Source of the DNA: Lunularia cruciata
Taxonomy: Eukaryota > Streptophyta > Marchantiopsida > Lunulariales > Lunulariaceae
DNA: 64,000 bases
Assembly (NCBI GenBank): GCA_948567375.1
Contig: OX419758.1
Coordinates: 5,895,001 to 5,959,000, forward strand
Direction: 5' to 3'
The translations under genes and the position numbers were made by a program. Under the pieces are notes generated by a model. That model saw nothing but the letters and a program-made list of their open reading frames with translations, was not told the DNA's origin and searched no databases. The stretch's first letter is position 1. Every line of letters starts with the position of its first letter. Shown piece after piece: positions 11,001 to 59,001 of the stretch.

Positions 11001-13465
11001 ATGGAGGACAGAAACGGAGATCTAGAGCGGCCGCTGCTGGAAGAAGAGAAACAGCAGCACATAATTTGGGAAGGCTTTACGAAATATGTTTTGCTACACG
11101 AAATGATGGAGATAGTAGCTTATAGCGGATTGCTTACAGTTTTGGGCCTATTCCTTTTGGAGAGCCTCCATTTTACCGAAGAGAGTGCGACTGAGGCTTT
11201 GTACTTGTTTTTTATCGGGACGTGTTTGAGCTGCGTTGTCGGCTCTTTAGTGAGCGACGTATTTTTGGTAAGCTTATCAGGTTTAAAACTTGCTTGGAAA
11301 TTTTTATCGGGACGTGTTTGAGCTCGGTTGTGAGTGTTTAGGGCTTTATTTCATGTTCAAATGACTACAGTATCGTACACTTTTGAACTTGTGGATTACA
11401 GGAGTCTTTCGGTTGCAGATTGAGATGCTTAGAAGTTTGTACAGCGGATGATGATAAGTGAAACGTGCACGATGTGGGTACTTCAACGCAAAGTAGGATC
11501 TTCTTGGTGCCCTCGTGTTTTTGAGTGGTCTCATATATGTGGTTTTGTATTACTTGAGCTCTGAATGACGCCCTGGGTGCCCCCTAGTTTTTGTTTGAAA
11601 AGAAGTATAGTTTATACGTCTTTTGTATGCATTGTTACTTCACAGCTTAAATCCGGCCTCTCCAATGGGAAAACCTCCATCCCAGTTAACCCATTTTGGA
11701 ATTCATCCTCATCATTTCTTCTTCTGCAAGTTTCCTACTGATTGTGTATTGCCTATAGGGCCCGGCCTGCTTGTAAATCTATTTTCATGACTTAGTTAAG
11801 CACCTGTTTAGCAGTTTCCGGGCTCAAAAGGCACGTGAGCTGAGGGTTAGGCCCTATGGACCCTAAAACTTATACAATTCTGGAGAACTATAAATTTTTA
11901 TTTCGGTATTAGGACAATATATCAATGTTTAATATATCACTCGGTACTCCCGTGAACGGATACTCCTAACCAACTAGTCAAACTCGTCAAACTCGTCAGC
12001 AGCAAGTTTAACTCGGAGAACGGCATGGCTAGGACGAGTGCATCCCACCTAGTTCCGTAGCTGTGAGCCGAAGTTGTTAAAGAAAAGCCTACCGACCAAA
12101 ACTCTCTAGTAGGCTAGTCAAACTCGTCAGCAGCAAGTTTAACTCGGACAACGGCATGGCTAGGACGAGTGCATCCCATGTAGTTCCGTAGCTGTGAGCC
12201 GAAGTTGTTAAAGAAAAGCCTAAGACCAAAACAGAGCTGTTTAAGGCATGAATTTTTTGTCACCTAACACCTTGGATGTTTTTCTTTTTGGTTGTCTGAC
12301 AGGGGGTGTATCGATCTATATACCGTTCTTCTTTCTATGAGTTCCGTATACTTATCGTATCTGCCATACCAGACGCGGATTGGCAATCATCTGCAGTTCG
12401 TAAAAATCTCAACTTAGTAGCCCTCCTTTTGGTGGCTCTCGGTTTTGGAGGCATGAGGCCATGCTAATCGACGTTGGAGGCAACCAAGCCATCCGCTCAA
12501 GGAGGAAGATTGTCGGAGACGATCTATTTTATTCCTCAACCAGTGAAGCGGGAAGTGCCACTCGGCAATATTACTCAGTGTACTACACGGCCTTGGTTTG
12601 TGCGACATTGATTAGTTCTTTCATTTTCCCTTGGGTGAGGGTCCATGGCCAAGGAAGCTATTTGGCTGTATTTCTCATTTCCTCGTGTGCTATGCCCTCG
12701 GGAACAATCTTCTTCTGGTTAGGGAGGAAGCATTATCGTCATGATCCCATCGGGACAAAAGCAGAGCTCAAAAATGGCCATTCGCAGCAGGACGAAGGGT
12801 CGAGGGAGATCTCAGAAGAAGTTGCAGATATGCGTTCCAAAGCTGTTGAGGAGTCTATGGAGAAGTTTCCAGTTGTAGAGTCAATGACGGGGGAGGATTG
12901 GAAGATCTTGATATCTGCAATGGTTGTCATGAGTCCGACTATTTTCTTCTCGGCCCTCCACTTGCAGCCCAGTTCTACTTGGCTCTTCCAAGCCATGAAA
13001 ATGGATGGTCACGTGCCGTGGTCCGGAGGCTTTAACGTTCCACCAGATGAAATGGGGGTAAGGCTGCCACATATCTTCCTTATCCGCATAGTTCAGCTTT
13101 CGTTATACATTAGTTTTTTCAAGTGGTTGTACCTTTGTTTTCTGGTGTGTTGCAAATTCATACATTGAGGTGCTGAACTCCTAGTTTCCCCTCAACTTAC
13201 AAGAGTGAGCAAGGAAACTAGCGAAGAGGAAGTTTTAGAGGGAATCTCGGTTGGACAATAGGTCTTAATTCTGACGTCCTTTTCATGCCATTGCGTTGTG
13301 ACAGGTGCTGAAACCAATATTCCTGGTTTTCCTCATTTTATTTCTGTATCATCTAGTTTACCCCTTCATCGGAAAGCACATCACGACTATGACAAATATG
13401 AGGAAAGATGGTGGTTGCGCTCGTCATGCTTACCCTTTCATTTGTTATTTCCAGCTAAATAGGTA
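11001..13465 (+). pseudogene. POT/PTR peptide transporter (SLC15/NPF superfamily), 5' exons only, frameshifted
   Basis: Three exons fit. Exon 1 is 11001-11267 (89 codons, MEDRNGDLERPLLEEE... to GSLVSDVFL, donor GTAAGC). Exon 2 is 12303-13057 (acceptor TGACAG, donor GTAAGG). Exon 3 is 13305 to about 13420 (acceptor TGACAG). Joined, they give POT signatures: YSGLLTVLGLFL (TM1), LLLVALGFGGMRPC (TM4), FIFPWVRVHGQGS, STWLFQAMKMDG and PIFLVFLILFLYHLVYPFIG. The last two match the SLC15-type loop and helix after the large insertion better than plant NPF proteins. One base is missing after the Cys codon at 12462-12464, which creates TAA at 12465. The C-terminal helices are not found downstream. This would be a proton-coupled oligopeptide carrier. 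Here it looks broken, unless the missing base is a sequencing error and later exons lie elsewhere. Confidence 0.8.
11974..12225. repeat. tandem duplication inside intron 1
   Basis: Two adjacent near-identical copies of about 135 bases (starting CTAGTCAAACTCGTC at about 11974 and 12113), each with GACGAGTGCATCCCA and GAGCCGAAGTTGTTAAAG. They differ at only a few positions, so the duplication is recent. Confidence 0.92.
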
Positions 13466-26244: not shown

Positions 26245-27282
26245 ACACACATTGGTGCATGTATACTCTATGGGGATATTAATTTTGGTATTGCAAGTAG
26301 TTGATAACTATTATATATATGGAGTTTAGCAAAGTTTCTATATTAGCTATGATTAACTAAAGTCAGCTACAACTAAGATAGATGTTACTCCATTATCACA
26401 ACATTTGTAGCTTTACATCTAGATTGCTTGGACACTAGAGTTGCAGTGATAGTAGTTAGAGATATTTTAGCAATTACTCATAGACTACTTTCCGACGGTC
26501 AGATTTTGTGTTTGGGGTACTGACTTCATGGTGGACCACACCATCATTTTGCACCGTTATGCACTGTTGGGTGTGTCACCAGCGGGACCATTAGGGTTTC
26601 AGACCTAGCTCAAGTCTAGGGGTATACTTTCAAAGTGCAACTCCAAAGAGCTCACTTCTTTGATGTTGAGCCTTTGAGTTCCCAGGTATGGTGGATAGAA
26701 GCCGGTGAGCATCACCTGGATTCTCTTAGTTACAATGGGTGTGACTTGACTGTGATCAGTGCCCGGTTGTTTGCAGTTTATTGAGTGACATATCAAGTAT
26801 TGATCTGATTTGAGTTGATTTGAGTTGTGTAAACGAACTAATTATTGTGGCACTAGAGTTTATGTATAACTTATGTGTGAGTTGTGCTTCTATAGTGTAT
26901 GATGTTGACAACGATGTATGTTGTGTAACAATGTATATACGCACCACACCACTTTAAAGAAAGTAGAAAGAGTGAGCATCATTATTTTGGATTCTAATGC
27001 ATTGACTTTGTATTATTCCTAGTTGTTTGGCTTTGAAGAAAGAGTTGAGAACTCTTGGGCCATAAGCTTTTTGGTTGTGGAATTTTCTATAGCCGAAGGA
27101 TAGCCCCTATGAAGGAATCTTTGACTTAGTTATTGGGTCAAGATAAGACCACCTACTCATGGGATTATTCTCATGTGTTTGGATATTCCTTTTGACTTTT
27201 GAATTTATATTACTTTTAGCCCAATAACTTGAGTCGCTATGGTAGTTAGTAATTTTGGTGTGTAACTTTTTCATAAGTATAT
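26245..27282 (+). repeat. 0.7-kb dispersed repeat, copy A, left part (split by two insertions)
   Basis: Starts ACACATTGGTGCATGTATAC and matches the copies at 52541-53237 (plus) and 53932-54615 (minus). It is interrupted first by the Y-X insertion (26393-26948) and then by the rDNA block from about 27283. The rest resumes at about 41123. Removing both insertions gives about 708 bases, against 697 in the intact copy, which confirms the split. Confidence 0.88.
26393..26948 (+). repeat. solo terminal repeat (Y-X) of the methyltransferase-gypsy family
   Basis: 556 bases matching 37882-38436 end to end: a Y part (26393-26845) followed by the X part (from TGTGGCACTAGAG at 26846 to GCACCACA at 26948). 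It sits inside repeat copy A. It is the product expected when the two Y repeats of a Y-internal-X-Y-X element recombine. It is clearly more diverged than the copies in the rDNA, so it is an older, independent insertion. Confidence 0.87.
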
Positions 27283-28328
27283 TCTTGAACTTGATTTAGG
27301 AATGGCCGAGGGTGCATCGTGATCTGCAGACATAGTGTAACATTGGATCGAAAGACACAAAGGAATCCTCGACGGCAAATGGTCAAAGTCGGGTCTCATA
27401 GGAGTGACGATGATATTCGCGCTTGTGTGTGGGTCGGCAAGGGAACAAGATGCCACTAGCGGCGCTCCATCTTGGAATCCTCTGTCCGTGTCCATGGGTG
27501 GCGCTTTCCACGAGAAAGGTGCATCTTGGAATGTGGGTGTCCCGAAAGCTTTGGAAATCTTCTCAAAAAAGGACGAGATGGGGAGGGAGGCTCAAAGCCC
27601 TCTCTCTCTCGCCCATGGCTGTCTTGCGGGCGCAAGCTCAGAAGACTTCCATGGCGGAAGGGCGTGTTTCATGTCCGGGGTTCATGTTCCCCATGCGAGT
27701 GATGATAGATGACATCCGACTCCTTGACTCGGCCGAGTGGCCAAGTAAACCAAGCGGATTCCTCCCATAGTAGGCTGTGAACTCGGGTTTGCCTTCGGGC
27801 CGCTCCCGGGCAGCCCCGTGGGGCTTGAGACTAAGATCTAGACGCACCATGGGTGTAAGCAAAGTGCATCGTAAGTAGCATCGGCCTCGTTCTTGGAGCC
27901 CGGCCCAACTGAGCACTCCCTTGATGGTTTCAACCAAGATGTTTTTGTGATGAGAGGCAGCACTACGTTTCAAAGGGTATTGACCAGAGGAAAGCGCTGG
28001 CTTTGGGGAACAAGGCTCTGCCCACTATGGCGGCGGTGCTCGTCCCTCAACCATCATGACGAAGTGAGTGCGGTCTTTGGACCCTCCATCTTGTGAGGAT
28101 TGAAAGGGGGGTGCGAAGGAAGGGCGCGCGGTGTCAAGGTATGCACTCATTTGTCACCTTTGTGGAGCTTGCATGGCACTCGGGGCACGTCTCGGGCAAC
28201 ACAACACTCTCAAGTTTTAGGCATTCTGTCGAGCCCTCCGGGACTTGACAAGACGCGCTCCCAAGGAGGCGGCCCGGCTGCGAAGTCGGTTTGCATAAGG
28301 CCTTGTGGGGAGCATCGTGAAGGTCGGT
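27283..28328 (+). other. rDNA 5' external transcribed spacer / IGS part
   Basis: GC-rich unique sequence lying directly upstream of the 18S start and bounded on the left by repeat copy A. It has no reading frame of note. I see no plant Pol I promoter-like TATA/GGGG start, so the block probably begins inside the spacer and lacks its own promoter. Confidence 0.65.
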
Positions 28329-28477
28329 TACCTGGTTGAACCTACCAGTAGTCATATGCTTGTCTCAAAGATTAAGCCATGCATGTGTAAGTATAAACAC
28401 TTTTGTACTGTGAAACTGCGAATGGCTCATTAAATCAATCATAGTTTCTTTGATGGTACTTTGCTACTTGGATAACC

Positions 28478-28517
28478 GTAGTAATTCTAGAGCTAATATT
28501 AGCTCTAGAATTACTAC
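28478..28517. repeat. perfect palindrome in 18S, 20-bp arms, no spacer
   Basis: GTAGTAATTCTAGAGCTAAT is followed at once by its exact inverse complement. Normal 18S continues from GCTAATAC into ATGCACCAAC, so the right arm (28498-28517) is a clean insertion. Confidence 0.97.
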
Positions 28518-28541
28518 TATGACACCAACTCCCGACTTCTA

Positions 28542-28990
28542 TGTCACGCCATTTGTAGTTCCGGATCTAGCTGCTCGGACACTGGAGTTCCAGTGATAGT
28601 AGTTAGAGTTATTCTAGTAGTTTCTCAGGAACTACTTTCCGACAGTCTGATTTGGTGTTCAAGGTACTGACTTCACGGTGGGGCCCACCGTCACTTTGCA
28701 CCGTTTGCACCGTCAAGTGTGCCGTCAGCGGGACCGTTAAATTTCCAGTGCTAGCTTGAGTCCAAGGGGTATAGTTTCGAAGTGAGCTCCAGAGAGCTCA
28801 CTTCTCTGATGTTGAGCCTTCGAGTTCCTGGCTATGGTGGACAGAGGCCGGCGAGTGTCACCTGGATTCTCTATGCTTGAGTGGGTGTGGCTTGACTGTA
28901 ATCAGTGCCCAATTGTTGGCAGTTTATAGAGTGACAAATCAAGTACTAATCTGAGTTGAGTTGAGTTGAAAGTGTTAAGCAATCTGATTA
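28542..28990 (+). repeat. terminal repeat Y1 (5' end, X part absent)
   Basis: 449 bases from TGTCACGCC to CAATCTGATTA. Matches Y2 (37882-38330) along its whole length at about 93%. Directly after it the sequence is CATCAGAGAAGTG instead of the X segment. ATCAGAG there is a weak match to the core of the iMet tRNA primer site. Confidence 0.93.
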
Positions 28991-30422
28991 CATCAGAGAA
29001 GTGAAGTCAGGGGGAAATTGGGTGCAGGAACGTTGAGTGTTGGTGGTATCTCCAAGCTCGGTGGATCGTGGTAGCTTGATTCAAGTTCTGTGTTTCCCTA
29101 GTGTGCAGAAGCTCGTTCAAGTGATTCAGATTTGGCAGTTAGGCGGATAGTGTGCGGAAGCGCTGGCCAAATTTCGAGCAAAGAAGGAGCAATTTTAGAG
29201 CAGTGTTGTGATTTTGAGCTCAAGAGGTGAAGGCAAGACCAATTTGTTGCGAGTTGGGCTCAGAAAGTGAAATTGAAGGTGGAGTTGGGAAGCTCTTCTC
29301 ATGAAATTGTGATTTGGAAAAACCCGTTTCGTCAATTTGGCTCGAGTAGAAAGTTAGCGGGGGATTTGGCGGACAGCCATCTTTAGGGTTTATGTCAGAT
29401 TTTACGTCAGATTTTGGGCCATATTTGGAGGAGTTTTTGCTGTTTGGCCAGATTTGGAGGAGTTTTGCTAGTTTGGAGGACTTTCGCAGATTTGGAGAAG
29501 TTTCGCCAATTTTGGAGGAGGTTTCGAAGTGGCAACAAGAAAGGCCTCATTTGGCTGAATTTCAGCATTTCAAGGCTTTGAGGCATAGGGCTGTGGGCTA
29601 TGAGAGGCTACGAAGGCCTAGAAGGGCCAGCTTGCTGGCGTGAGGCTAGCTAGTTTAGAGTAGATCTTGGTCATTGGTTGGCAAAATCTGCCTTTCTTGC
29701 TAGATTGTGCGCAACATGGATTGGCCCCTAGATCTCTTGTTCCTAGACTGGTGCCCTAGCCAACTGGTCCACCCTCACCAGTTGTCCTAGTGACTGCGCC
29801 GCTGTTATCTACACACATGTAGCTTTGGCTAGGAGAGGCAGTTTGATCCCATTCTTGGTGATCCTGGTAGCTTAGGACTTAGATACAAACTGCTCTTATG
29901 TCAAATGCCAAATGGTGGCAGAGTCAGTCCCGTGTTGTGTTATGAGATGGAGGGTTTTCGTTTAGATTTCTTGTGATTGGATCCACTCCATTCTCTACTT
30001 CCTGTTTGTGCACCACGTTTGTGTGAGGTGCCCTAACTTTTGAGCGTTGGTGCTCTGGTGTGCTCTCGGTGGTGAGGCTGGAGTGATGACTAGTCAGACT
30101 ACCTTTGTTTCTCTCCGGCGAGGCAGAAAGTGATGACCTGCAGACCGTGAGAGTGCGTGTTATGATGGTAGGTTACAGGTTGCCCTTCCCCTAGTGTAGT
30201 TATCTCGGTTAGAGTTACATTAGTGGGTGTTGTCTAGTTGGTGTTTGCACTTGGTGGGGTACTTGCGGTTGCGACTTGCGGTTGCAGTTGGTGGTTCGGG
30301 TTTCCTGTTGCAATTACTTGGTCACGACGGAGTTCTTTGGAGATTCCAGAGGAGTTAGCCCTGTAGTACGTAGTGGGTTTACTCGGAGTGGTGCTTGGTA
30401 TCAGCCTGTATCTTAGGTCCCT
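28991..30422 (+). other. leader of the methyltransferase-gypsy element
   Basis: About 1.4 kb without a conserved frame. Purine-rich GGAGGAGTTTTG-type repeats lie at 29420-29530. TGGTATCAG, the core of a typical iMet primer binding site, occurs at about 30397 just before gag, an odd position. TGGTGGCAGAGTC at about 29934 is a second partial match. The true PBS is therefore unresolved. Confidence 0.55.
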
Positions 30423-31770
30423 GTGAGGGAGGAGATTGACTCTAAGTTGGAGTTCAACACAGGAGCTGATTCAGTTGAGAGTGCACTTAGTGTGTCCGCA
30501 CCGTTGTTGTGGGACATGGACGTGATTTATGGGGCCTCCAAAGGCCCCAGGCATTACTCTGGTACAGTGGGTACCATTGAGTTGGATGACTTCATCCAGG
30601 AGTTTGATAGTTGGTGTGATCTACAGCAAATGCAGAACCCGACTTTGTTCACACCCTTCATGGCATGGAAGGGGTTGTTTCAACATCTAGAGGGTCCGCT
30701 GATGGATGACTACCATGAGTTCAGGAGAGCTCATTTGGAGGAGATCGAGTTATGGAGATAGTATTGGTCTCCACATTATGTCTCCATCACTTCAGGCTCG
30801 GTGGCCAGGAGTAGATCGGCTGTACCCACGAGTTCTAGCTCGAGTAGTGTTAGTGGAGCTAGTGGAGGTGCACTAGCTGGAGATAGTGCTACTACGAGTG
30901 GAGGTACCGCTGCAGGAGGTGGTGTGGTACCGGGGTTTAACCCCATGGGTGAGTTCTTCCTATGTTTGAGGCAGAACTACCAAGGAGTGCGGACTGACAA
31001 GCTGAGGAGCTTGCAGGAGTTCCAGCGGAAAGTTGGAGAGAGCCTACGCGAGGCATACACTCGCATGAGGCGGCTGATCAGTTTCACTCAGGGAGTTACT
31101 GAGGCCTAGGCAGTCTAGTTTTGGTATGGGATACTGGACAGGGAGTTGCGACGTAGAGTTTGTGATGCTATGTTGCTGCAGGCTACTTCACCCACTTTGG
31201 TAGTAGTCTTTGGTTTGGCTGAGCGTATTGAGCTCAACATGGTGGAGGAGAGAGTGGTGACATCAGGATTTGGTAGGGAGACCTCATCCATGGTTGTGAC
31301 TTCTTCTAGAGTGCAGCAGAGTGCACCACGCCCAGTTGGTTTTTGAGGACAGGGTGGACAGCCCAAATCCTATGGAGCGAGTGGAGGGCCTAGTGGAGTT
31401 AGACCCTTACCCTCATTTTCGGGTCAGTAGCAGCCAGTGAGTGGTGGTGTTGCTTGTTGGACTTGTGGTGGACCTCACCATAGGAGAGAGTGTACTCAGG
31501 GCAGCGGACTTGATACCTCTGGTGCATCACAGCCAGCACAGAGGCAGTGTGAGCACTGCCACAGATTTGGTCACACTAGTGACCGGTGTTTTGACCTACA
31601 CCCGGAGTTACAGAGTGGTAGGGCTGCTATGGCAGGTAGTAGAGGAGCTCCAATTCATGGAGGACAAGGTGGTAGAGGTGGTGGTAGAGGATCTACACCT
31701 AGTAGGGGTGCAGTACCTGCCCTTACTTCTGACACAGCTATGGCTACTTGGATTGAGCAGTTGGAGTAGA
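30423..31770 (+). pseudogene. gag of the methyltransferase-gypsy element
   Basis: In one frame broken by TAG at 30759, 31107, 31116, 31428 and 31767 and TGA at 31344. An N-terminal capsid-like part (WDMDVIYGASKGPRHYSG, DDFIQEFDSWCDLQQM) is followed by a Ser/Gly-rich linker (30801-30920), LREAYTRMRRLISFTQGV, then two zinc knuckles: CWTCGGPHHRREC (31455) and CEHCHRFGHTSDRC (31540-31580). The second is a textbook C-x2-C-x4-H-x4-C. A Gly/Arg-rich tail follows. The protein would coat element RNA. Most stops sit where Gln (CAG) or Arg (CGA) would restore sense. Confidence 0.87.
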
Positions 31771-31772
31771 GA

Positions 31773-33218
31773 TTGGCTAGTATGGCTATTGCTCAGAGGA
31801 AATCAGATTCGGGTGCTGAGGCTTCTACCTCATATGCTGGTGATAGAGATGCTTTGGACTTCATGTGTGGAGCAGCACAGGTGGATGCATCTGCAGCAGT
31901 GACTAGGAGTGCAGTACGTGCTCCAGAGCCTAGAGGAGCTTCAGTGGAGTTGGACCCACAGAGAGGAGAGGTTGGGAGACAAGTCAGACTTCCCCAATCT
32001 TTCATGCTATCTGAGGCATTGCAGATAACATCCATGGTTCCTAGACATCCCAGTGCAGGTGTGGTAGGTGGTGATGGAGTACCTGATGAAGTACTTGCTA
32101 GTCAGCCACTTGCTACTACACAAACTGAGTCTAGCATGATGTTGGGGGCGGCTCAGCTGATTATGCGGCATCCTTTGTTTTCAGCCAGTGACATGTTTAC
32201 ATTGGGGGTTGACCCAGCCCCAGTGTTCCGGTTGGTTGCCACGTTGTGTGAGAGTAGGGATGGTGCAGTTCCTACTACTAGAGCAGAGGTGGTTGGTAGT
32301 GGAGCTGACTTGGTTGAGGAGCATGGGATCCGTTCAGCGACCAGTGGTTTATGGCAGGCAGCAGCGGCTAGACTGGAGGAGTTGCCAGCTAGACCGGCCT
32401 TTGAGAGAGCGCGGTTTACACCTAGTGTTGTCCTATTGGATAACCAGAGGGGGATCTTTTGTTTGGTGGGACCTTCAGGGAAGGTCTATACACCACAGAG
32501 AATCTTGTTAGACTCTGGTGCGTAGCCCCTTATGTTGGGGAAGGCTGCAGTTGTCGGTCTGGAGTTACGGAAGACCGATGTGGAGAGGTGTCCATTTCAG
32601 ATCCAGACATCTCTTGGTGGTGGTTCGACACAGTACATCCCACGTGGAGAGCTTGTTGTCCAGGTTCAGCCTGGTCATCCAACTGATAGCTCGGTGGTGA
32701 GAGCTCAGGCTATTACGATGATAGCTAAGTCATATGATGTGCTAGTTGGGGGAGCAGTGTTATACCCTATGGGTTTCAGCATTGACTATTGGGAGGAGAC
32801 AACCTCTTATAGACCTGGTTGGCAGTCTGGTGAGGGACGGGTATGTCGCCTACCAGTACGCTTCAGTAGTGGCAGTCTTGGCTCACTACAGTCCGGGGCC
32901 ATGGCAGCAACAGTTTTAGCTTTCAGCGGTGCAGTTACTTGGCCTGGTGACTTGTTGGAGGGGAACGCCCATGCAGAGGATACTCTAGTACCAGAGGAGA
33001 TCACTCGGCTTTGGAGTACGAGTGAGATTGTTCCATCCACCTTGGATGTTCCATTGTGGAGTTCAGAAGAGGCATTGCAGCAACATGCAAATCAGTTGGT
33101 GCAGCAGGCTTGGAGTGGAGCCTTCGTACCATCAGGGGATGAGTGTGAGGATGAGCCTCCAGAGGTGATTGCTTTGACACCTTTGGATACCAACTCATTG
33201 CTTGGCAGTATCCAGTAG
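31773..33218 (+). pseudogene. linker and aspartic protease of the methyltransferase-gypsy element
   Basis: The same frame continues with a low-complexity region (31773-32400). The retropepsin loop RILLDSGA follows at 32500-32522, then TAG (32523, Gln expected) and PLMLGKAAVVGL. The flap/C-terminal part (YDVLVGGAVLYPMGFSIDY) is near 32740-32790. The DSG triad is intact. The region after it (32800-33218) has an acidic end (DECEDEPPEV) and may be a spacer before the methyltransferase. It would mature the polyprotein. Confidence 0.8.
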
Positions 33219-33224
33219 AGGAGA

Positions 33225-34430
33225 TATGTCTATTGGAGTTGTTTGGTGGGATCAGCACCGGACTAGCTGCGGTGTTACAGGCAGGTATACGAGTACAGAG
33301 TTACTTGTATGTAGAGAAAGATGAGATTGCTAGGCGAGTCTCTCTACATCATGTGGCACTATCAGTATCCGGAGTTATTACCAATGTCAGCAGTCAGAGG
33401 TTACCAGAAGGCCTTACCAAGAGACATTTCCTTACAGGGGGTGCATGACCTAGAGAGACATGGGCCTATTCACTTGGTGATTTCTGGATGGCCATGTCAG
33501 GGACATACACGTGCGGGCCGTAGTTTGGGTCTTCAGGATCCTTGTTCTGGTGTGTTTTGGGAGATGTTACGGATACTACGACATCTCCAGGTTCATCAGT
33601 CTGTTTCTCCAGCTTACCTTTTGGAGAACGTTCCTTTGATGGGTGATTTTTGCACTAGAGTGGAGGTGAGTACACATCAGGTCCATTCTTGGATGGGACC
33701 TACTGTATTGTTAGATGCAGCCAGAGTGGGATCACGGGCTCATCGTCTTCGCCTTTGGTGGACGAACTTTTTACCCAAAGAGGTTCTACAGCGTAGTTAT
33801 GATGGGATTCAGCGACGAGACCACATTCTTGTTGATGATATCTTGGATGCTGGGCGTCAGTCTCAGACAGTGGTAGTGGCTGATAGGTCACCTATGGCAG
33901 TGGTGAACCTAGTTGGACAGCCTAGAGCTGCATTTTCCACACTCATGAGTTTCCCATGCTCTCATGCTTTTTGAGAGGGAGGACCTGGACTTGTTTGGGA
34001 CTCACAGTTACAGCAGTTGATGGAGCCCAATGCTGATGAGAGAGAGCGGGCGATGGGTTTTTACACCGGTATTATTGCTGTTCCAATAGTGTCAGAGGCA
34101 TCCAGGCGTCAGGTGTTAGGTCAGGCTATGGAACTAAACTGTTTGACCTGGATTGTGAGCCTTGGTTTGGCAGAGCAGCGTAGGATGCGCTTGATAGGCA
34201 TCACCACTCGGACACTTGTGAGCCCTGTGCCTATCGAGACGATTCAAGCACATGCTGGGGGCGATGGACCGAGTGGACATGGTATTCTTGGGACACATCC
34301 AGTAGCTACTAGGGAGAGTGGTCTACTTGGAGTCCATCCAGGTGAGCGTGGGCTACTTGGATTACACCCTTGGTCCACATGGGATGCAGCTAGAGGACGT
34401 GTGGAGCTTGCAACCAGAGTGGAGTGAGTT
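33225..34430 (+). pseudogene. cytosine-C5 DNA methyltransferase domain (Dnmt3-like motifs)
   Basis: Motifs appear in canonical order. Motif I is LELFGGISTG (33233, SAM binding). A VEKDEIARRVSLHH segment follows. Motif IV is SGWPCQGHTRAG with the catalytic Cys in PCQ (about 33485-33520). Motif VI is LLENVPLMG (ENV, about 33622). Motif VIII is SRAHRLRLWWTNFLP (RxR, about 33732). Motif IX/X is ASRRQVLGQAMELNCLTW (about 34105). ISTG, the SGWPC context and AHRxRxxW-N-LP resemble Dnmt3 more than Dnmt1 or chromomethylases, and the order is not rearranged as in plant DRM. The first about 45 codons are in another frame, with the break near 33355. TGA at 33972 and 34425 also interrupt it. It would methylate cytosines in DNA, perhaps the element's own cDNA. 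Catalytic residues are intact, the frame is not. Confidence 0.93.
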
Positions 34431-34529
34431 TTTCACACAGAGGTTGGGACCTCTAGTGGTCGGGAGCATGACACTATTGCTCCCAAGGGCCTAGTGTAGC
34501 AGCCAATCAGTATGTCTTCCACTCCTACT

Positions 34530-35300
34530 ACAATTACATAGGATACTTGGGAGCCAGATCTTGGACCCAAGCTTACTAGAGAGGAAAGACAGAGGGTTTG
34601 GAGGTTCTTGAGGAGTCACACGAGTTGTTTTGCCTTCAATATGAAGGATTTGGGTGCTTTGAAGGGACCTGGTATACAGATTGAGCTGACTAGCAATACA
34701 CCTATTTTCTGACGTCCTTATCGATATAGTGATATGGAGAGGACATTGATTCAGAGCCGGAGTAGTGACCTTTTTGAGGCTGGTTTGGTGGAGATTTCAC
34801 ATGGAGAGTATGCATTAGTGACAGTGATGCCAGCCAAGAAGGATATGCATGGCAACTATACAGATAGGCGGATGTGTGGAGATTACCGTCCTATCAACCG
34901 ACAGACCAGGGCTGATCGGTATGCCATGCCTACACCGGAGGAGATTTTTGATGCGATTGGGCATGCAAAGGTCTTTAGTACTTTGGATCTTTGAGCAGGA
35001 TATCATCAGTTGCCGAGCAGGGAGGAAGATAAGTCCAATACAACATTTTGGGCTATTGATCCTCACGGCAAGGATGTGTTATATCAGTGGAGGTTCTTAC
35101 CATTTGGGTTGAAGAACGCTCCTACTGAGTTCCAGAGGGTCATGGATAGAATCCTAACTGGATTGGATTTTGCTCGGTGTTATATTGATGACATTTTGGT
35201 CTATAGCACTATTGTGGAGGAGCATGAGAGACAGTTGTTGGAGGTGTTTGAGAGGTTGAGATCTCATGGACTCAAACTACATCCTGGGAAGTGTAGGTTC
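34530..35300 (+). pseudogene. reverse transcriptase of the methyltransferase-gypsy element
   Basis: Contains GLVEISHGEYA, the MCGDYRPINRQTRADRY block, FSTLDL-stop-AGYHQLP (TGA at 34992 where Arg/CGA is usual), LPFGLKNAPTEFQRVMDRIL and CYIDDILVYS with the catalytic YxDD intact, then VEYLGHTI. Further stops: TAG 34539 and TGA 34710 (PIF-stop-RPYR, again an Arg position). The domain would copy element RNA into DNA. Confidence 0.95.
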
Positions 35301-35940
35301 TTCCACGAGCAAGTTGAGTATTTGGGTCACACTATCTACCCCGGAGGACTTGGTGTTCAGCAGACCAAGGTGGAGGCTATTGCACGTATTCCTCGGCCTA
35401 CGGATGTGAGCAGAGTGCAAGCATTCCTTGGGTTGGCAAACTTCTATTGCCGCTATGTTAGAGGATTTAGTGCCATTGCCAAGGCCTTGACAAAGTTGAC
35501 CAAGCTTACACAAGAGTGGTGTTGGGGAGATGAGCAAGAGAGAGCTTTTGTAGAGCTCAAGGAAAGGTTGACATCTGCTCCTATTTTGAGGAGACCGATC
35601 AGGGGACGACCATTTCAAGTTCACACTGATTGGAGTATGTTGGGGCTTGGAGCGGTGCTCACCCAGCATGTTGATGAGGAGAAGGAGTTTGTGGTGGCCT
35701 ATGCTAGTCGCTCCAACAATTCAGCGGAGGCGAAGTATAGTTCATATGAGGGAGAGTGCTTGGCAGCAGTTTGGGCAGTAGCACATCTCCGATGTTACCT
35801 ATTTGGTAACCCTTTCACTCTCATCACTGATCATCAGCCGCTAAAGCGGTTGATGGAGTCCGACAAGCTTTCAAGGAAGCTTGCACGATGGGCTCTGATT
35901 TTATAGGGGTATGACTTCACGGTTGTTCATAGACCTGGAG
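35301..35940 (+). pseudogene. RNase H of the methyltransferase-gypsy element
   Basis: FLGLANFYCRYVRGFS leads into FQVHTDWSMLGLGAVLTQ (first Asp), SSYEGECLAAVWA (Glu) and LITDHQPLKRLM (Asp), then RWALIL-stop-GYDFTVVHRPG. The stop (TAG 35904) replaces the Gln that plant gypsy elements have in LILQxYDF, direct evidence for a CAG to TAG change. Confidence 0.95.
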
Positions 35941-36179
35941 TGGTGAACCGTGATGCAGATGGGTTGAGTAGAAACCCATGTCCCAGCCAGCAGGATCAGA
36001 CCGGAGCACGTTGGCATGGTGAGACAGATGAGGAGATGGTGCCAGGTTGGCATGCATCGGCCTTTTTGTGTATATTTGCAGAGACTTTGGTGGTATCTCT
36101 CTCAGTGCATACAAGAGGAGTTATTGAGGTCACAGATCCAGAGAGTGAAGATATTAGTACAGTTCAGCGAGACATTCAT

Positions 36180-37305
36180 GATGATGTCTTAGTGATGGAC
36201 TATCTTTGCACTGGTGTTGTGGGTGGCACAGTTGGGGCCAAGGAGAGAGACCGTGTTCTTCAGCAAGCCAGACGGTTCAGATTGGAGGGTAGACACCTTT
36301 TGCGTGTATGGGAGGATGGTAGAGTGCGAGTAGTACCACTTCCATCACAGAGACCACAGTTGGTCCATCATGCTCATGAGGAGCTAGGACATTTTGGAGT
36401 AAAGCGTACATATAGCCTACTTCAGAGTCATTATTGGTGGTATGTAGACCGAGGTGCAGCAGTTTGTTGCCAGATGTGTGGTTTGTGACCGAGTTAGAGC
36501 ATCATTCAATGCTCCTATGCCACAATTACACCCATTACCTATCATGGGATTGGGTTACCGTTGGAGTTTGGACTTTGTTGGACCTTTACCGCTGACTGTG
36601 AGACATCATCGGTATGTTTTGGTGATGGTGGAGCACTTCTCCAAGTGGATTGAGTTGGCGGCACTTCCTGACAAGTCTAGTGAAGGGACATCTTACTCAT
36701 TCCTGGATCGAGTTCTTAGTCATTTTGGTGCACCAGCTGAGGTTTTGACTGATCAGAGTACAGAGTTCTTGGGAGAGTTTCAAGTCTTGTGTGACAAGGC
36801 TTTGATTGATCATCGTACTACATCCTGAGATCACCTTGAGGCAGATGGCTTAGCAGAGAGAGTGGTTCAGACGGTGAAGAGAGGACGAAAGTATGGTTTG
36901 CAGAGAGGCCACTTGGGAGATTGGGATCTCCAGTTACCTTGGTTGGCCATGGGCTATCGGTTCAGCCGGCAAGCCTCCTTAGCATCCTTCTCTCCATACT
37001 TTCTACTCTATGGACAAGATCCAGATTTACCTCTAGCCATTTGTCGAGATGCTACTATAGTTTTGGACTTGGATGACCCTAATGTATGGATGAGCGCATG
37101 TTCTCAGCGGGCAGAGATCTTTCGGAGAGTGATGCCGATGGCCTTTGAGAACTTGGCAATTGCTCAGCATAGAGATACTTTATGCTATGCTACCATTCAA
37201 GGAGGAGGTTATAGACCCTTGATCCGTTGATTTCATCCAGGCGACTTTGTATATCTACTTCAAATAGCACCAACGACACTTGATGTTTCTACAGGCCGCA
37301 CTATC
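36180..37305 (+). pseudogene. DDE integrase of the methyltransferase-gypsy element
   Basis: The zinc-binding part has HHAHEELGHFGVKRTYSLL and, after a frameshift near 36450, ARCVVCDRVRA. The core shows SLDFVGPLPL (Asp), VLTDQSTEFLG (Asp) and DGLAERVVQTVKRG (Glu), so the DDE triad is complete. TGA at 36826 (TTS-stop-DH) and 37228 (LIR-stop-FHPGDFV) both fall at expected Arg codons. A C-terminal FHPGDFVYLL/GRTILRVREV segment corresponds to the GPY-type module. It would insert cDNA into chromosomes. Confidence 0.94.
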
Positions 37306-37605
37306 TTGAGAGTGCGTGAGGTTTTGCCATCTGGAGTCCTTGTGTTAGAAAAACGTGATGGTGTTGTTTGGAAGGATCATGTGCGCAATTGTGCGCCATG
37401 CCACCTTCCAAACATTGATGGTACTATGGACCCAAGCTTGGCACTTGTATGTGCAGGCTTGAGGTGTATGTTATGTGGCTCTTCTGGTGGAGCTGCTACT
37501 ATGTTAGTGTGTGATAGCTGTTCGAGAAGATGGCATATGGCATGTATGACTCCTCCCCTCACGGTGGTTCCTCAGGGACAGTGGTTATGTCCTAGATGTA
37601 CTTGA
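37306..37605 (+). CDS. PHD zinc finger at the integrase C-terminus
   Basis: 99 open codons in the integrase frame, ending at TGA 37603-37605. Residues about 55-99 give a complete C4HC3 PHD finger: CMLC, nine residues, CDSC, four residues, HMAC, then GQWLCPRC with the conserved Trp two before the Cys pair. PHD fingers bind histone H3 tails. In chromoviruses the same place is taken by a chromodomain that steers integration, so a targeting role is likely by analogy. This is the only part of the polyprotein without a stop codon over its whole length. Confidence 0.92.
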   Translation: MRVREVLPSGVLVLEKRDGVVWKDHVRNCAPCHLPNIDGTMDPSLALVCAGLRCMLCGSSGGAATMLVCDSCSRRWHMACMTPPLTVVPQGQWLCPRCT

Positions 37606-37758
37606 CATGTAGCTAGTTCATTCTTTATATGGTATAGATTGCAGACAGGCGACTAACGATGGGGCTCCATAGCACCCGGCCTCTTGATCTTTGCCCATTA
37701 GAGGGTATACCATATACTTAGAGTAGATGGCTATCTGGAGTTAGAGGGACCTAACCGC

Positions 37759-37773
37759 CAACTAGGGGGGCGA
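37759..37773 (+). other. polypurine tract before X1
   Basis: AACTAGGGGGGCGA lies directly before TTGTGGCAC, the start of X1. By normal gypsy logic this places the LTR start at X1, not at the Y2 start, which conflicts with the genomic ends. Confidence 0.65.
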
Positions 37774-37774
37774 T

Positions 37775-37881
37775 TGTGGCACTTTAGAGTCTATGTATGA
37801 CTTATGTGTGAGTTGTGCTTCTATAGTGTATGATGTTGACAGCGATGTATGTTGTGTAGCGATGTATATACGCACGACAGC
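37775..37881 (+). repeat. terminal repeat X1
   Basis: About 107 bases, TGTGGCACTTTAGAG to CGCACGACAGC, nearly identical to X2 (38332-38436). It is present here ahead of Y2 but missing after Y1. Confidence 0.95.
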
Positions 37882-38330
37882 TGTCACGCCATTTGTAGTT
37901 CCACATCTAGCTGCTCGGACACTAGAGTGCCAGTGATAGTAGTTAGAGTTATTCTAGTAGTTTCTCAGGGACTACTTTCCGACAGTCTGATTTGGTGTTC
38001 GGGGTACTGACTTCACGGTGGGGCCCACCGTCACTTTGCACCGTTCACACTGTCGAGTGTGCCGTCAGCGGGACCGTTAGGGTTCCAGTGCTAGCTCAAG
38101 TCCAGGGGGTATAGTTTTGAAGTGAGCTCTAGCGAGCTCACTTCTTTGATGTTGAGCCTTCGAGTTCCTGGCTCTGGTGGACAGAGGCCGGCGAGCGTCA
38201 CTTGGATTCTTTATGCTTGAGTGGGTGTGGCTTGATTGTAATCAATGCCCAATTGTTGGCTGTTTATAGAGTGACAGATCAAGTACTGATCTGAGTTCAG
38301 TTGAGTTGAAAGTGTTAAGCAATCTGATTA
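37882..38330 (+). repeat. terminal repeat Y2
   Basis: 449 bases matching Y1. Flanked by X on both sides. Confidence 0.95.
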
Positions 38331-38331
38331 T

Positions 38332-38436
38332 TGTGGCACTTTAGAGTCTATGTATGACTTATGTGTGAGTTGTGTTTCTATAGTGTATGATGTTGACAGC
38401 GATGTATGGTGTGTAGCGATGTATATACGCACAACA
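38332..38436 (+). repeat. terminal repeat X2 (element right end)
   Basis: Ends GCACAACA, immediately followed by TCTGGAAGGG of 18S. TCT also precedes the left end (ACTTCT, then one extra A), so any target duplication is at most 3 bp. Confidence 0.93.
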
Positions 38437-39189
38437 TCTGGAAGGGATGTATTTATTAGATAAAAGACCAATGCGGGCTTGCTCGGTGTTTTGGTGATTC
38501 ATGATAACTCGACGAATCACACGGCCTTAGCACTGGTGATGTTTCATTCAAATTTCTGCCCTATCAACTTTTGACGGTAGGGTAGAGGCCTACCGTGGTG
38601 GTAATGGGTGACGAAGAATTAGGATTTGATTTCGGAGAGGGAGCCTGAGAAATGGCTACCACATCCAAGGAAGGCAGTAGGCGTGCAAATTACCCAATCT
38701 TGACACAGGGAGGTAGTGACAATAAATAACAATACTGGGCTTTTAAAAGTCTGGTAATTGGAATGAGTAAATCAAAATCCCTTAATGAGGATCCATTGGA
38801 GGCAAGTCTGGTGCCAGCAGCCGCGGTAATTCCAGCTCCAATAGCGTATATTTAAGTTGTTGCAGTTAAAAAGCTTGTAGTTGGATCTTGGGGAGGGGTG
38901 AGTGGTCCACCTCTTTTGGTGTGCACTAGTCGCCTCTCTCTTTTAGCCGGGGATGTGCTTCTGGCCTTGACTGGTCAGGATGCGGAGTCGGCGATGTCAC
39001 TTTGAAAAAATTAGAGTGCTCAAAGCAAGCCTACACTCTGAATAATTTAGCATGGAATAATGCGACAGGACTCTGGTCTTATTGCATTGGTCTTTGGGAC
39101 CGGAGTAATGATTAATAGGGACAGTTGGGGGCATTTGTATTTATGGTCAGAGGTGAAATTCTTGGATTCATGAAAGACGAACTTCTGCA

Positions 39190-39226
<37 letters not shown>

Positions 39227-39241
39227 AAAAGTTGGGGGCTT

Positions 39242-39285
<44 letters not shown>

Positions 39286-39372
39286 AAATAGGGATCAGCG
39301 GATGGTAATTTGATGACTCCTTCGGCACCTCATGAGAAATCAAAGTTTTTGGGTTCCGAGGGGAGTATGGTT

Positions 39373-39426
<54 letters not shown>

Positions 39427-39450
39427 GCGGCTTAATTTGACTCAACACTG

Positions 39451-39485
<35 letters not shown>

Positions 39486-39782
39486 TAGATTGAGAGCTCT
39501 TTCTTGATTCTATGGGTGGTGGTGCATGGCTGTTCTTAGTTGGTGGAGTGATTTGTCTGGTTAATTCCATTAACGAACTAGACCTCAGCCTGCTAACTAG
39601 CTACTCCAGGACTTGTCCTTGTGGCCAGCTTCTTAGAGGGACTATCAGCATCTAGCCAATGGAAGTTTGAGGCAATAACAGGTCTGTGATGCCCTTAGAT
39701 GTTCTAGGCCACACGCGCGCTACATTGATGGACTCAACGAGTTTATAACCTAGGCCAAAAGGTATGGGTAATCTTTTCAAAC

Positions 39783-39813
<31 letters not shown>

Positions 39814-39987
39814 ATTGATCTTCAACAAGGAATTCCTAGTAAGCGTGAGTCATCAGCTTGCATTGACTACGTCCGTGCCCTTTGTACAGACCGCCCGTTG
39901 CTCCTACCAATTGAATGGTCCGGTGAAGAGTTTGGATTGCGGCGATGCCGGCGGTTTGCCACCGGTGACGTTGTGAGAAGTTCTTTA

Positions 39988-40056
<69 letters not shown>

Positions 40057-40057
40057 G

Positions 40058-40839
40058 AACACACAAGCAAACATCCAATGTGAACATACCAAACATCGTA
40101 CAATTTGAGGAACCGCGTCCAGAGGCGCGGTCACTGGTGGCGCTCGTCGACCACTCGGGCCCCTTCATGAGCACCGGCTCGGACTCTCCATCCTTAGCAC
40201 GGTGGCGGGGACTTGCTCGGCGACTTGGGGTTTGGTTGGGTTCGGCGTTAGTGATCGGCCCCAAGAGTTCCCGTGGAACCGGCGATTTGGATGGCCGGTG
40301 CCCTCAGCGGGGTGCCGGCGTGTTCCGGTTTGCTGGTGACGGGGTCCCTCCGGGGGCTGCGTGTGAGGTGCTCAAGCGCATTGCACGTCGTCGGTGAGTG
40401 GTGGCGCTTCTCGGCCTGTGTCCATGCGGGACGATGAGTCTCATTAGCGGGCGCTGCGTGTTCCTACAAATGACTTGGTGATCGGACTTGGCGCTCCGAC
40501 AAGGTCTTGGGCCTGCAGTGTGAGATCCCCTCAATTGGCGAGGGGCTTGCACGGACCCTTTGCTTCATTTGGGTGCTGGGTTCGAGAAGCTCAGATTTTG
40601 CAGGAGGTGCGGTGCTGGCAAGCGGGATGAGTCATCCTGCGTGGGCGCCAAGTGCTATCCCCTCCCCTCGGCGCTTGGATCCATGCCAACTCCCGACGGG
40701 GAGTCGGTGTCGCGGTCTGCTCTGCCTTGGGCCGTTTCATCTCTCTCTACAAGAACACTAAAAACAAATCTTATATTGACTGAGTCTTCTCCGAGGGGAT
40801 CTGCGCTTCCAGCACCAGGACCCGAGGAGTCAAGAATAT
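40058..40839 (+). other. ITS1
   Basis: About 780 GC-rich bases between the 18S 3' end and the 5.8S start. It still holds many CpG sites. Reading frames in it are incidental. Confidence 0.88.
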
Positions 40840-40998
40840 ATCACGACTCTCAGCAACGGATATCTTGGCTCTTGCAACAATGAAGAACGCAGCAAAATGC
40901 AATACCTAGTGTGAATTGCAGAATTCCGTGAATCATCGAGTTTTTGAACATATGTTGCACCCGAGGCTTGTCCCAAGGGCATGTCTGCCTAAGTGTCA
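40840..40998 (+). rRNA. 5.8S rRNA: 5.8S rRNA, CpG-decayed copy
   Basis: ACGACTCTCAGCAACGGATA through AATGAAGAACGCAGC, TGAATTGCAGAATTCCGTGA and ATCATCGAGTTTTTGAA. Many conserved CG sites are TG or CA (CTCAGC for CTCGGC, GCAACAATGAAG for GCAACGATGAAG, CAGCAAAATGCAATAC for CAGCGAAATGCGATAC). Length is normal, but the number of changes at conserved positions marks a pseudogene. Confidence 0.93.
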
Positions 40999-41122
40999 CC
41001 GCATGTCTCACCGACTCTGACTCCCAATTTATTTTGGGTGTTCCGGGGGAGAGTGGAAGTGACCATCCGAGGAACTGTCCTTTCCCCCCTTACAAAGGGG
41101 GGAGTGTGGATCGGCGCCACAT
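40999..41122 (+). other. ITS2, truncated
   Basis: About 120 bases follow 5.8S, then the sequence switches to the right half of repeat copy A. No 26S rRNA is present in the window. Confidence 0.8.
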
Positions 41123-41345
41123 TAAGAGTTAAGGGTGAAGAGACACTCATTATCCTTTCATTTGCAACTATCTCACTCTCTGAGTTCTCTAGGGAGCAAT
41201 GGCTTGAGACTTAGAGATTCTTTGGAGTTTTAGCTTTGGAGGAGTGTGATGGAGTTTTGGTTATTTGCCTTCTTAGTCCATGGTGCACTACCTTGTTAGC
41301 CATCAAAGTTTTATCCTAAGTGAATGATAGGTTGGTTCACAAGAT
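41123..41345 (+). repeat. 0.7-kb dispersed repeat, copy A, right part
   Basis: Resumes the repeat interrupted at 27282 (ACTCATTATCCTTTCATTTG, GGAGGAGTGTGATGGAGTT, ending GGTTGGTTCACAA) and matches the end of copy B at 53040-53237. Confidence 0.88.
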
Positions 41346-41459
41346 AAAGGAGAATTGAAGGAATGTCCTTGGTCTAGGTGCAAGCCCAAGGGCTTGCACC
41401 TAGACCAAGGACATTCCTTCAATTCTCCTTTATCTTGTGAACCAACCTATCATTCACTT
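41318..41459. repeat. perfect palindrome, 70-bp arms, 2-nt spacer
   Basis: Arms 41318-41387 and 41390-41459 are exact inverse complements around AA. GGGCTTGCACCTAGA then occurs once more at 41460-41474. The left arm starts in the end of repeat copy A. With no mismatch in 70 pairs it is very young or a sequencing/assembly fold-back. Confidence 0.97.
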
Positions 41460-41479
41460 GGGCTTGCACCTAGATCATG

Positions 41480-55305: not shown

Positions 55306-55902
55306 TGTAATACTTTGAGGATAGGAGAACTCTCCAAGAAAAACACTAGAGAGAAGACACAAGCTTCACATTCAATACTTTGATGCCCCAAATGAGCACC
55401 TTGTCTTTATTATATAGCAAAGAGGATCTCTTAGGGGAAGCTCCACCCTTGGATCAGATACATGGATTGGTGACATGTCAGTGAGCTCTACCTTTAGATT
55501 AAGTGCATGCATGGGTGACATGTTGGTTATGCTCCTATTTAGTAGGTCAACAATTTTTGACCAGAAGGAATCTTTAGGGAATCTTCCTATAGGAATCTTA
55601 GAATCACACGTGAGGTCCTGTTGGAAAGCTCTTGATGAGACAAACCTAGGGGAAGGGGAGGCCAGCCTGTCCTCCATGGGGGAAGGTCAATCTTCACATT
55701 TTCAAGGCCTAATTCATCCATTTAGGCCTTCGAAATTGACTTTGAAGTTTTCAACTTGTTTTTGGCTCTTGCTCTATTAGTAGAAGTGCTCTTTTGGTGA
55801 TACTTCTATCTGATCTCTCTAGCCCAACCTACATAACATCCTTCTAGGTGTCACCAAGCCAATTTTCACCTTTAGATAATATGTCTAGCTATTGGTATTA
55901 CA
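55306..55902 (-). repeat. 3' LTR of the nested gypsy element
   Basis: 597 bases. Minus strand starts TGTAATACCAATAGCTAGAC at 55902. Closely matches the 5' LTR. Confidence 0.93.
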
Positions 55903-55917
55903 AACCTCCCCCCTTTT
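55903..55917 (-). other. PPT of the nested gypsy element
   Basis: Minus strand AAAAGGGGGGAGGTT directly before the LTR start TGTAATACC. Confidence 0.9.
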
Positions 55918-56158
55918 AAGATGCAATGTCCTCATTGCAAAGTTGTTGCTCAAAAGATTACACTAACACCAATGCATTGGTCAAGTTGACTATTGCTTCC
56001 CATGTTGCCTCATACAATGAGTACCCTTTCCACTATACAAGATATTCCACACGCAAATGGCAAGTACCCTGGATGCAATTTTGAAGAATGCATTCAACTT
56101 TCTATTCAATGAATGTTGGACAAGGTCAAATGTCTTGTATGGAAGGAAAGTGGGGTAG

Positions 56159-57200: not shown

Positions 57201-57203
57201 ATT

Positions 57204-57850: not shown

Positions 57851-57899
57851 TGCCCAATAGTGCTATAAGAGGCTATGCAATCTTGGAGAAGTCCTCAAA

Positions 57900-58812: not shown

Positions 58813-59001
58813 CTTACCAATAGATGTGGTCCTTATGACATAAAGAGGCAGCTCTTGCCTTTGTGATCTTTCTGTAACACCAAAGATCTTCCATTAACTA
58901 GTTCTCACTACCTTCTTTCTCCAATCCACCGTGGAGTTGTAGTGCTCCATCCATGGCATGCCTAAGATTACATCATAACCAACTAATCATATCACTTGCC
59001 A

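What the first reader, a model, noticed from the sequence alone, without database searches (positions are those of the whole stretch)
28542..38436. Split direct repeats (Y - internal - X - Y - X) on an element with a DDE integrase
The 5' end carries only Y, the 3' end X-Y-X. This A1-internal-B1-A2-B2 order is the hallmark of PAT/Ngaro tyrosine-recombinase elements, yet this element has protease and a complete DDE integrase. The PPT lies before X1 and a weak PBS core follows Y1, so reverse transcription would predict an X-Y LTR. The genomic ends are instead at the X/Y border. A two-LTR circle opened at that border gives exactly this structure, so insertion through a circular intermediate is one explanation. 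Deletion of X after Y1 plus duplication of X is another.
Basis: partly seen in the sequence, partly recalled or inferred. Interest (0 to 1): 0.88.

Follow-up and report, generated by a model that had tools for sequence, protein, structure and literature searches.

The report
Retrotransposon with shifted integration ends
A plant-type jumping gene seems to copy itself like an ordinary LTR retrotransposon but to enter the chromosome through a site in the middle of its own repeats, so its copies look cut open and rearranged in the same way, which suggests its DNA ends are joined before or during insertion.

Summary
In detail: Y1 (28542-28990), internal, X1 (37774-37879), GC, Y2 (37882-38330), X2 (38331-38436), inserted in an 18S rDNA copy. 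It is a family property. Of 40 genome copies plus one nested copy, none has X in direct order before Y1. Both ends are known in 30: 26 end X-Y-X, 3 end in a single X, 1 is internally deleted. A 4-bp target duplication at the Y-start/X-end boundary is perfect in 23 of 30 and 3/4 in 5. The element is a Ty3/gypsy retrotransposon with a DDE integrase, a cytosine methyltransferase and a PHD finger. Both Ys, and both Xs, of a copy share subfamily alleles, so LTR-type reverse transcription (PPT before X1, order X-Y) is indicated. Integration instead uses a palindromic border inside that X-Y unit, GACA-GC-TGTC; 16 bp around it are identical in a relative. Best model: cDNA ends are joined and the DDE integrase cuts at X|GC|Y. 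Two facts are unexplained: the reciprocal opening (Y-X-Y-internal-X) was not found, and the Y|X joint is almost invariant. The layout is not wholly new: a 2018 figure legend notes DIRS-type repeats with Gypsy domains in Klebsormidium; the passages I read do not discuss duplications, junction or mechanism.

The parts
28538..28541 (+). left copy of the 4-bp target duplication (TCTA)
   Evidence: SSU rRNA on both sides; that intact plant 18S reads TCTG here is recalled
28542..28990 (+). Y1, the only repeat unit at the 5' end; begins TGTCACG
28992..28998 (+). weak primer-binding-site core ATCAGAG directly after Y1
   Evidence: sequence; the 22 bases across this point are identical in 29 of 40 copies; the tRNA match is recalled, not tested
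30417..31766 (+). gag region (CCHC-like motifs; Retrotrans_gag only at E 0.067, below cut-off)
33426..33650 (+). C5 cytosine DNA methyltransferase domain, upstream of RT
   Evidence: Pfam DNA_methylase 7.3e-7
34713..35903 (+). reverse transcriptase and RNase H (Pfam matches in the 34995-35903 piece; one stop between the pieces)
   Evidence: Pfam RVT_1, RT_RNaseH; homologues
36342..36822 (+). integrase: H2C2 zinc-binding domain and rve DDE core
   Evidence: the frame is broken between the two in this copy
37465..37599 (+). PHD finger at the C-terminus of pol
   Evidence: Pfam PHD 1.4e-11
37762..37773 (+). polypurine tract before X1 (CTAGGGGGGCGA)
   Evidence: sequence; recognisable in 23 of 25 displayed contexts before the first X (exceptions L062 with a deletion, and L084 whose shown X is X2); similar tract in L001
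37774..37879 (+). X1
37873..37888 (+). CACGACAGCTGTCACG: X1|GC|Y2 border with 10-bp palindrome GACAGCTGTC, proposed integrase site
   Evidence: identical 16 bp at the corresponding place in L001, 7048-7063
37880..37881 (+). 2-bp spacer GC between X1 and Y2
   Evidence: 22 X1-Y2 borders measured: GC 16, AC 3, GT 2, AA 1
37882..38330 (+). Y2
38331..38436 (+). X2, 3' terminal unit, ends ...ACAACA
38437..38440 (+). right copy of the target duplication (TCTG)
26394..26948 (+). solo Y-X remnant of the family (82.6% to Y2-X2) inside another repeat; probable target duplication CCAT/CCAC

Best explanation
This is a multicopy Ty3/gypsy retrotransposon family whose reverse-transcription unit and integration unit are out of register. 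Shown: genomic copies are Y-internal-X-Y-X with TGTC...GACA ends and 4-bp target duplications. X1 follows a polypurine tract and Y1 precedes a primer-site-like core. The two Ys, and the two Xs, of one copy share alleles as if renewed from a single template. Inferred: the RNA runs from Y1 into Y2; LTR-type reverse transcription yields X-Y-internal-X-Y; the right end (Y) is joined to the left end (X); and the element's DDE integrase nicks both strands of a palindromic GACA-GC-TGTC site (2-nt stagger, as in 3' processing) inside the left X-Y unit. The two freed 3' ACA ends attack the target 4 bp apart. The result is Y-internal-X-Y-X. The internal X1-GC-Y2 block is a stored copy of the joined ends. 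A possible reason for using only the left site is that it becomes double-stranded first during plus-strand transfer. That last point is speculation.
For: Ends and duplications: of 30 copies with both ends known, 23 have perfect 4-bp duplications, 5 have 3/4, 2 have none (primary data). Layout: 26 of 30 are X-Y-X at the 3' end (22, four more); 0 of 40 (plus 1 nested) have X in direct order before Y1. Independent insertions: no two of 40 upstream flanks match in register at the junction. One copy is nested in another copy's gag, whose uninterrupted sequence is known. The solo Y-X at 26394-26948 has the same ends. Shared alleles in 22 copies: Y 145 within-copy matches against 62.0 mean and 102 maximum in 2000 shuffles; X 15 against 7.3 and 13. 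PPT conserved. Relative L001 has PPT-X-GC-Y-leader order and the identical 16-bp border, in repeats otherwise mostly below 60% identical per 20 bases. DDE integrase present; no tyrosine recombinase among Pfam matches of 15 pieces of the window copy and three long L001 frames. Of the six exact int-X-Y-leader places, one looks like a tandem dimer and one circularly permuted, with 146 bp of pol missing between its ends.
Against: A two-LTR circle has two equal X|GC|Y sites; opening the other would give Y-X-Y-internal-X, and none was found: 0 of 40 copies, none of the 6 exact X-Y-leader matches, and the only two exact Y-X-Y matches lie 557 bp apart at one place that is not among those six. Exact patterns miss decayed copies, so these are lower bounds. 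The Y2|X2 joint is identical in 20 of 23 copies and only one of 23 has an indel, tidier than ordinary end joining would be expected to leave. Two Y columns carry an allele in Y2s only (5 and 6 of 22), perhaps CpG decay. Shared alleles could also arise by gene conversion, which was not tested. The primer site is a weak match. Two of 30 copies have no duplication, one of them (L084) with the full X-Y-X. No transcript, circle or integrase data were available.
Confidence: 0.73

Rival explanations
1. DIRS/PAT-style replication: the RNA runs from Y1 to within X2, X1-Y2 acts as a template that bridges the missing termini, and a circle forms whose Y2-X2 joint is simply inherited (model recalled, not looked up).
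For: Same A-internal-B-A-B layout as PAT/Ngaro. The near-invariant Y2-X2 joint is what inheritance through RNA would give. Two Y columns have an allele in Y2s only.
Against: Alleles are shared by Y1 and Y2 of the same copy along the unit, to column 438 of 456, and X column 47 is shared in 11 of 11 copies; separate inheritance of X2 and Y2 would let them drift apart. A polypurine tract sits at X1. No tyrosine recombinase was found, and target duplications are present.
Confidence: 0.12
2. Ends are joined only after integrase acts: the integrase attacks the target with both sides of the left X|GC|Y border of a linear cDNA, leaving a chromosome break with free Y2 and X ends that the host repairs.
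For: Gives the same product and would explain why Y2|X2 is a joint; left-site preference could follow from the order of synthesis. No call tests it directly.
Against: The joint has almost no end-joining scars.
Confidence: 0.1
3. Rearranged ordinary LTR element: Y-X is a normal LTR; in this copy X was deleted after Y1 and duplicated before Y2.
For: Y...X ends with TG..CA and a 4-bp duplication look like ordinary integrase ends; the solo remnant is Y-X.
Against: The same arrangement is in 26 of 30 copies in unrelated sites, 20 of those 26 with perfect duplications, and the X-before-Y order after a PPT is also in a relative.
Confidence: 0.02
4. Two nested or tandem ordinary X-Y elements, trimmed to leave Y-internal-X-Y-X.
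For: Six exact int-X-Y-leader tandem or rearranged forms exist in the genome; L114/L120 look like a dimer.
Against: Trimming cannot give identical ends with target duplications in independent sites.
Confidence: 0.02

Closest known systems
KnitGypsy-Dnmt3 of Klebsormidium nitens (de Mendoza et al. 2018, PMC5890265; abstract, passages and the Fig. 4 legend seen)
   Same: Gypsy domains with a cytosine methyltransferase in pol; the Fig. 4c legend says the repeat structure is the same as that of a DIRS retrotransposon. A K. nitens protein with methyltransferase, RT and integrase domains (P0167) is 47% identical to L001 pol; that it is KnitGypsy-Dnmt3 itself is inferred.
   Different: In the passages seen the paper gives no target duplications, no integrase junction, no test of concerted evolution and no mechanism for that family. 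Whether it has the GACA-GC-TGTC border is not known here.
PAT / Ngaro split-direct-repeat elements
   Same: A1-internal-B1-A2-B2 layout (passages of PMC4157794).
   Different: Those carry a tyrosine recombinase, lack an integrase and make no target duplication (same passages); this family has a DDE integrase and 4-bp duplications.
Ordinary Ty3/gypsy LTR retrotransposons (Metaviridae)
   Same: gag, RT, RNase H, integrase in that order, PPT, short target duplication, TG...CA ends.
   Different: Ends used by integrase lie inside the X-Y unit that reverse transcription duplicates, so there is no identical LTR at each end.
IS3-family (IS911-type) transposon circles and the retroviral circle-junction model (both recalled, not looked up)
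   Same: DDE enzyme acting on two abutted inverted ends a few bases apart.
   Different: A bacterial DNA transposon, and a retroviral model that was later abandoned; homology is not claimed.

Membership tests
PAT/Ngaro (tyrosine-recombinase retrotransposons) | split direct repeats A1-internal-B1-A2-B2 | tested here: met
   26 of 30 copies with both ends known
PAT/Ngaro (tyrosine-recombinase retrotransposons) | tyrosine recombinase gene | tested here: not met
   no Phage_integrase match in 15 forward-strand pieces of the window copy or in three long L001 frames; DDE rve found instead. The reverse strand was not scanned with Pfam
PAT/Ngaro (tyrosine-recombinase retrotransposons) | no target-site duplication | tested here: not met
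   23 of 30 perfect 4-bp duplications
Ty3/gypsy (Metaviridae) | RT and RNase H followed by a DDE integrase | tested here: met
Ty3/gypsy (Metaviridae) | aspartic protease | tested here: inconclusive
   DSG motif but no Pfam match in the window; Asp_protease_2 E 7.8e-4, below cut-off, in L001
Ty3/gypsy (Metaviridae) | identical LTR at each end of the element | tested here: not met
   Y only at the 5' end, X-Y-X at the 3' end
DNMT-bearing Gypsy lineage of streptophytes (KnitGypsy-Dnmt3) | cytosine methyltransferase upstream of RT | tested here: met
   window; L001; an in-frame stop separates it from RT there; K. nitens, Closterium and Marchantia homologues with PF00145 and RT
DNMT-bearing Gypsy lineage of streptophytes (KnitGypsy-Dnmt3) | DIRS-like repeat layout | tested here: met
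   this family; K. nitens by figure legend only
DNMT-bearing Gypsy lineage of streptophytes (KnitGypsy-Dnmt3) | methyltransferase of the Dnmt3 class | not tested
   no tree of methyltransferases was built
DNMT-bearing Gypsy lineage of streptophytes (KnitGypsy-Dnmt3) | same integrase ends and target duplication in K. nitens | not testable with these tools

The most novel reading that the evidence does not exclude
An LTR-type retrotransposon whose DDE integrase routinely integrates from joined cDNA ends, cutting an encoded circle-junction-like site (GACA-GC-TGTC) instead of the cDNA termini: a eukaryotic element that works the way the circle-precursor model once proposed for retroviruses.
Probability: 0.65. 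Interest if true: 0.9.

Novelty: new variant of a known kind. Interest (0 to 1): 0.78.

Why it matters
Split direct repeats are treated as a mark of tyrosine-recombinase elements; here the same layout goes with a DDE integrase and target duplications, so the layout may reflect use of joined ends rather than the kind of recombinase. If the model holds, a DDE integrase can use an internal abutted-ends site as its normal substrate, which makes an old and abandoned idea about retroviral circles testable in a plant-type lineage. Repeat annotation that looks for identical terminal repeats may also miss or misplace the ends of such families.

Tried and rejected
Rejected: rearrangement of one copy (26 of 30 copies share the layout). 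A common rDNA target (the window copy is in 18S, but no two of the 40 upstream flanks match in register at the junction). Chance ends. Tyrosine recombinase.

Led nowhere: two viral contigs protein scans. A viral-contig scan for the 16-mer gave 8 loci, none with a tblastn match to the relative's pol or gag. The other six genome-contig hits (L002-L007) are 33-40% identical to the RT query and were not used beyond a self-comparison. The count of the X|GC|Y2-X2 pattern did not complete. For 11 of the 40 copies the 3' end was not reached (nested DNA, truncation or the letters limit). The L001 contig has 127-bp identical ends; this could be a real circle or an assembly-graph loop, so it is not used as evidence of circles. 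L117 is taken as circularly permuted from its two ends only; its middle was not read and is about 580 bp longer than expected. Of the six int-X-Y-leader places only L114 and L117 were followed further. In one search the 3' boundary was one base off, so its duplication column is wrong; redid it.

Paper searches cover open-licence PubMed Central only. They found the Klebsormidium paper; no listing showed a mechanistic account for a DDE element with this layout. Subscription journals were not searched. A look into a third paper (PMC6681497) failed and was not repeated.
Full report
What is there. It is inserted in an 18S rRNA gene copy. Given the stretches 28300-28541 and 38438-40100, Rfam aligns SSU rRNA to 28329-28541 and to 38438-40057, with low posterior probability in the last bases on the left; the whole-window search gives 5.8S at 40845. 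The left flank ends TCTA and the right flank begins TCTG, a 4-bp target duplication with one transition; that intact plant 18S reads CGACTTCTGGAAGG here is recalled. The coding region of this copy is decayed.

A second trace in the window. A solo Y-X lies at 26394-26948, 82.6% identical to Y2-X2. It sits in a repeat with two other window copies. The flanks read CCAT before and CCAC after it. One of the two uninterrupted copies has CCTA once at that point; the other lacks the bases there. So the solo has the same ends as the full element and a probable 4-bp duplication. A solo Y-X is what recombination between Y1 and Y2 of a Y-internal-X-Y-X element would leave.

The family. The window lies in an unnamed 565.8-Mb genome. 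A search with Y1 plus leader gave 40 scored places, the window included, out of 8574 first-look candidates; an X-Y-internal-X-Y copy should have been found just as well. I fetched 5' and 3' pieces of the 39 others and longer stretches for some. All 40, and one further copy nested in another's gag, begin with Y, and none has X in direct order before it; one (L060) abuts an inverted piece of X, as if inserted into the X of an opposite copy. Both ends are known for 30 copies, the nested one included: 26 end X-Y-X (one of them, L098, with an extra X), 3 end in a single X (L054, L062 with a deletion, L086), and 1 has an internal deletion. At the Y-start/X-end boundary 23 of 30 have a perfect 4-bp duplication, 5 match in 3 of 4 (the window copy among them), and 2 do not match (L084, L086). 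No two of the 40 upstream flanks match in register at the junction, so these are independent insertions. In 11 of the 40 copies I did not reach the 3' end.

How the repeats are renewed. In 22 complete copies Y1 and Y2 of one copy are 91.5-98.9% identical. Minor alleles found in at least two copies are shared by the two Ys of the same copy 145 times, against a mean of 62.0 and a maximum of 102 in 2000 shuffles; for X it is 15 against 7.3 and 13. Several alleles are shared without exception in 5 to 11 copies. Two Y columns go the other way, with an allele seen only in Y2s (5 and 6 of 22). Both Ys, and both Xs, thus appear to be copied mostly from one template per cycle, as LTR-type reverse transcription does; gene conversion was not tested. 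A polypurine tract stands directly before the first X in 23 of 25 displayed contexts. Reverse transcription should therefore make an X-Y unit at each end.

Where the integrase acts. Integration ends are TGTC... and ...GACA, that is, the X1|GC|Y2 border. In a relative on a 9285-bp contig filed under a cyanobacterial MAG (L001; RT 67% identical; very probably a eukaryotic contaminant), the order is again PPT-X-GC-Y-leader, and the 16 bp CACGACAGCTGTCACG around the border are identical, although the surrounding repeat is mostly below 60% alike in 20-base windows. The 2-bp spacer is GC in 16 of 22 borders, the others being AC 3, GT 2, AA 1. Nicking both strands after ACA would free two processed ends with 2-nt 5' overhangs, which is how integrases prepare ends (general knowledge).

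Putting it together. Joining the right end (Y) to the left end (X) and cutting at the left X|GC|Y border gives exactly Y-internal-X-Y-X. Two facts limit this model. First, cutting the equivalent right border would give Y-X-Y-internal-X, and none was found: six exact X-GC-Y-leader matches all follow pol, not Y, and two exact Y-X-Y matches sit 557 bp apart at a single place that is not among those six. Exact patterns miss decayed copies. Second, the Y2|X2 joint is the same in 20 of 23 copies; of the others one has an extra A and two have substitutions. An ordered or protected joining step is needed; the guess that the left site becomes double-stranded first is mine. The six int-X-Y-leader forms include a likely tandem dimer (L114/L120) and one copy whose two ends lie 146 bp apart in pol (L117, L119, L121), as a captured one-unit circle would. 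I did not read its middle.

Relatives and novelty. The best named RT relatives are from the liverwort Calypogeia fissa (78%), which suggests a bryophyte-like host (inference). Among the 120 pol relatives listed, proteins with methyltransferase and RT domains occur in Klebsormidium, Closterium (both also with the integrase core) and Marchantia, and PHD fingers in many unnamed proteins and one Klebsormidium protein. De Mendoza et al. 2018 (PMC5890265) state in the Fig. 4c legend that the K. nitens Gypsy elements with DNMTs have the repeat structure of a DIRS element. In the passages I saw target duplications, integrase ends and mechanism of that family are not discussed.

Noticed in passing
window 28478-28517: A perfect 40-bp palindrome in the 18S fragment just left of the insertion: a piece of 18S copied back inverted.
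   Followed up: no
window 28329-41462: Degenerate-looking rDNA copy (18S, 5.8S) interrupted by the element and followed near 41127 by another repeat, with a 148-bp palindrome at 41315-41462.
   Followed up: partly
window 55306-61628: An ordinary LTR pair (TGTA...TACA, 86% identical, PPT-like tract on the minus strand): the same window holds a conventional LTR element as a contrast.
   Followed up: partly
L001:3474-3515: In-frame TAG followed by CAATCA between the gag-methyltransferase frame and the RT frame, resembling a TMV-type readthrough context (motif recalled).
   Followed up: no
window 37465-37599; L001 pol C-terminus: PHD finger after the integrase in both, and in many homologues; possibly a chromatin-targeting module in place of a chromodomain.
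   Followed up: partly
G000:C8:55981738-55982413: Two Y-X-Y matches 557 bp apart, read as a local array of alternating X and Y units.
   Followed up: no
G000:C2:22744185 (L113), G000:C6:60094214 (L115): int-X-Y-leader copies preceded by inverted pieces of the element's own interior.
   Followed up: no
window 12461-13165: Fragment of a POT-family (PTR2) transporter gene.
   Followed up: partly
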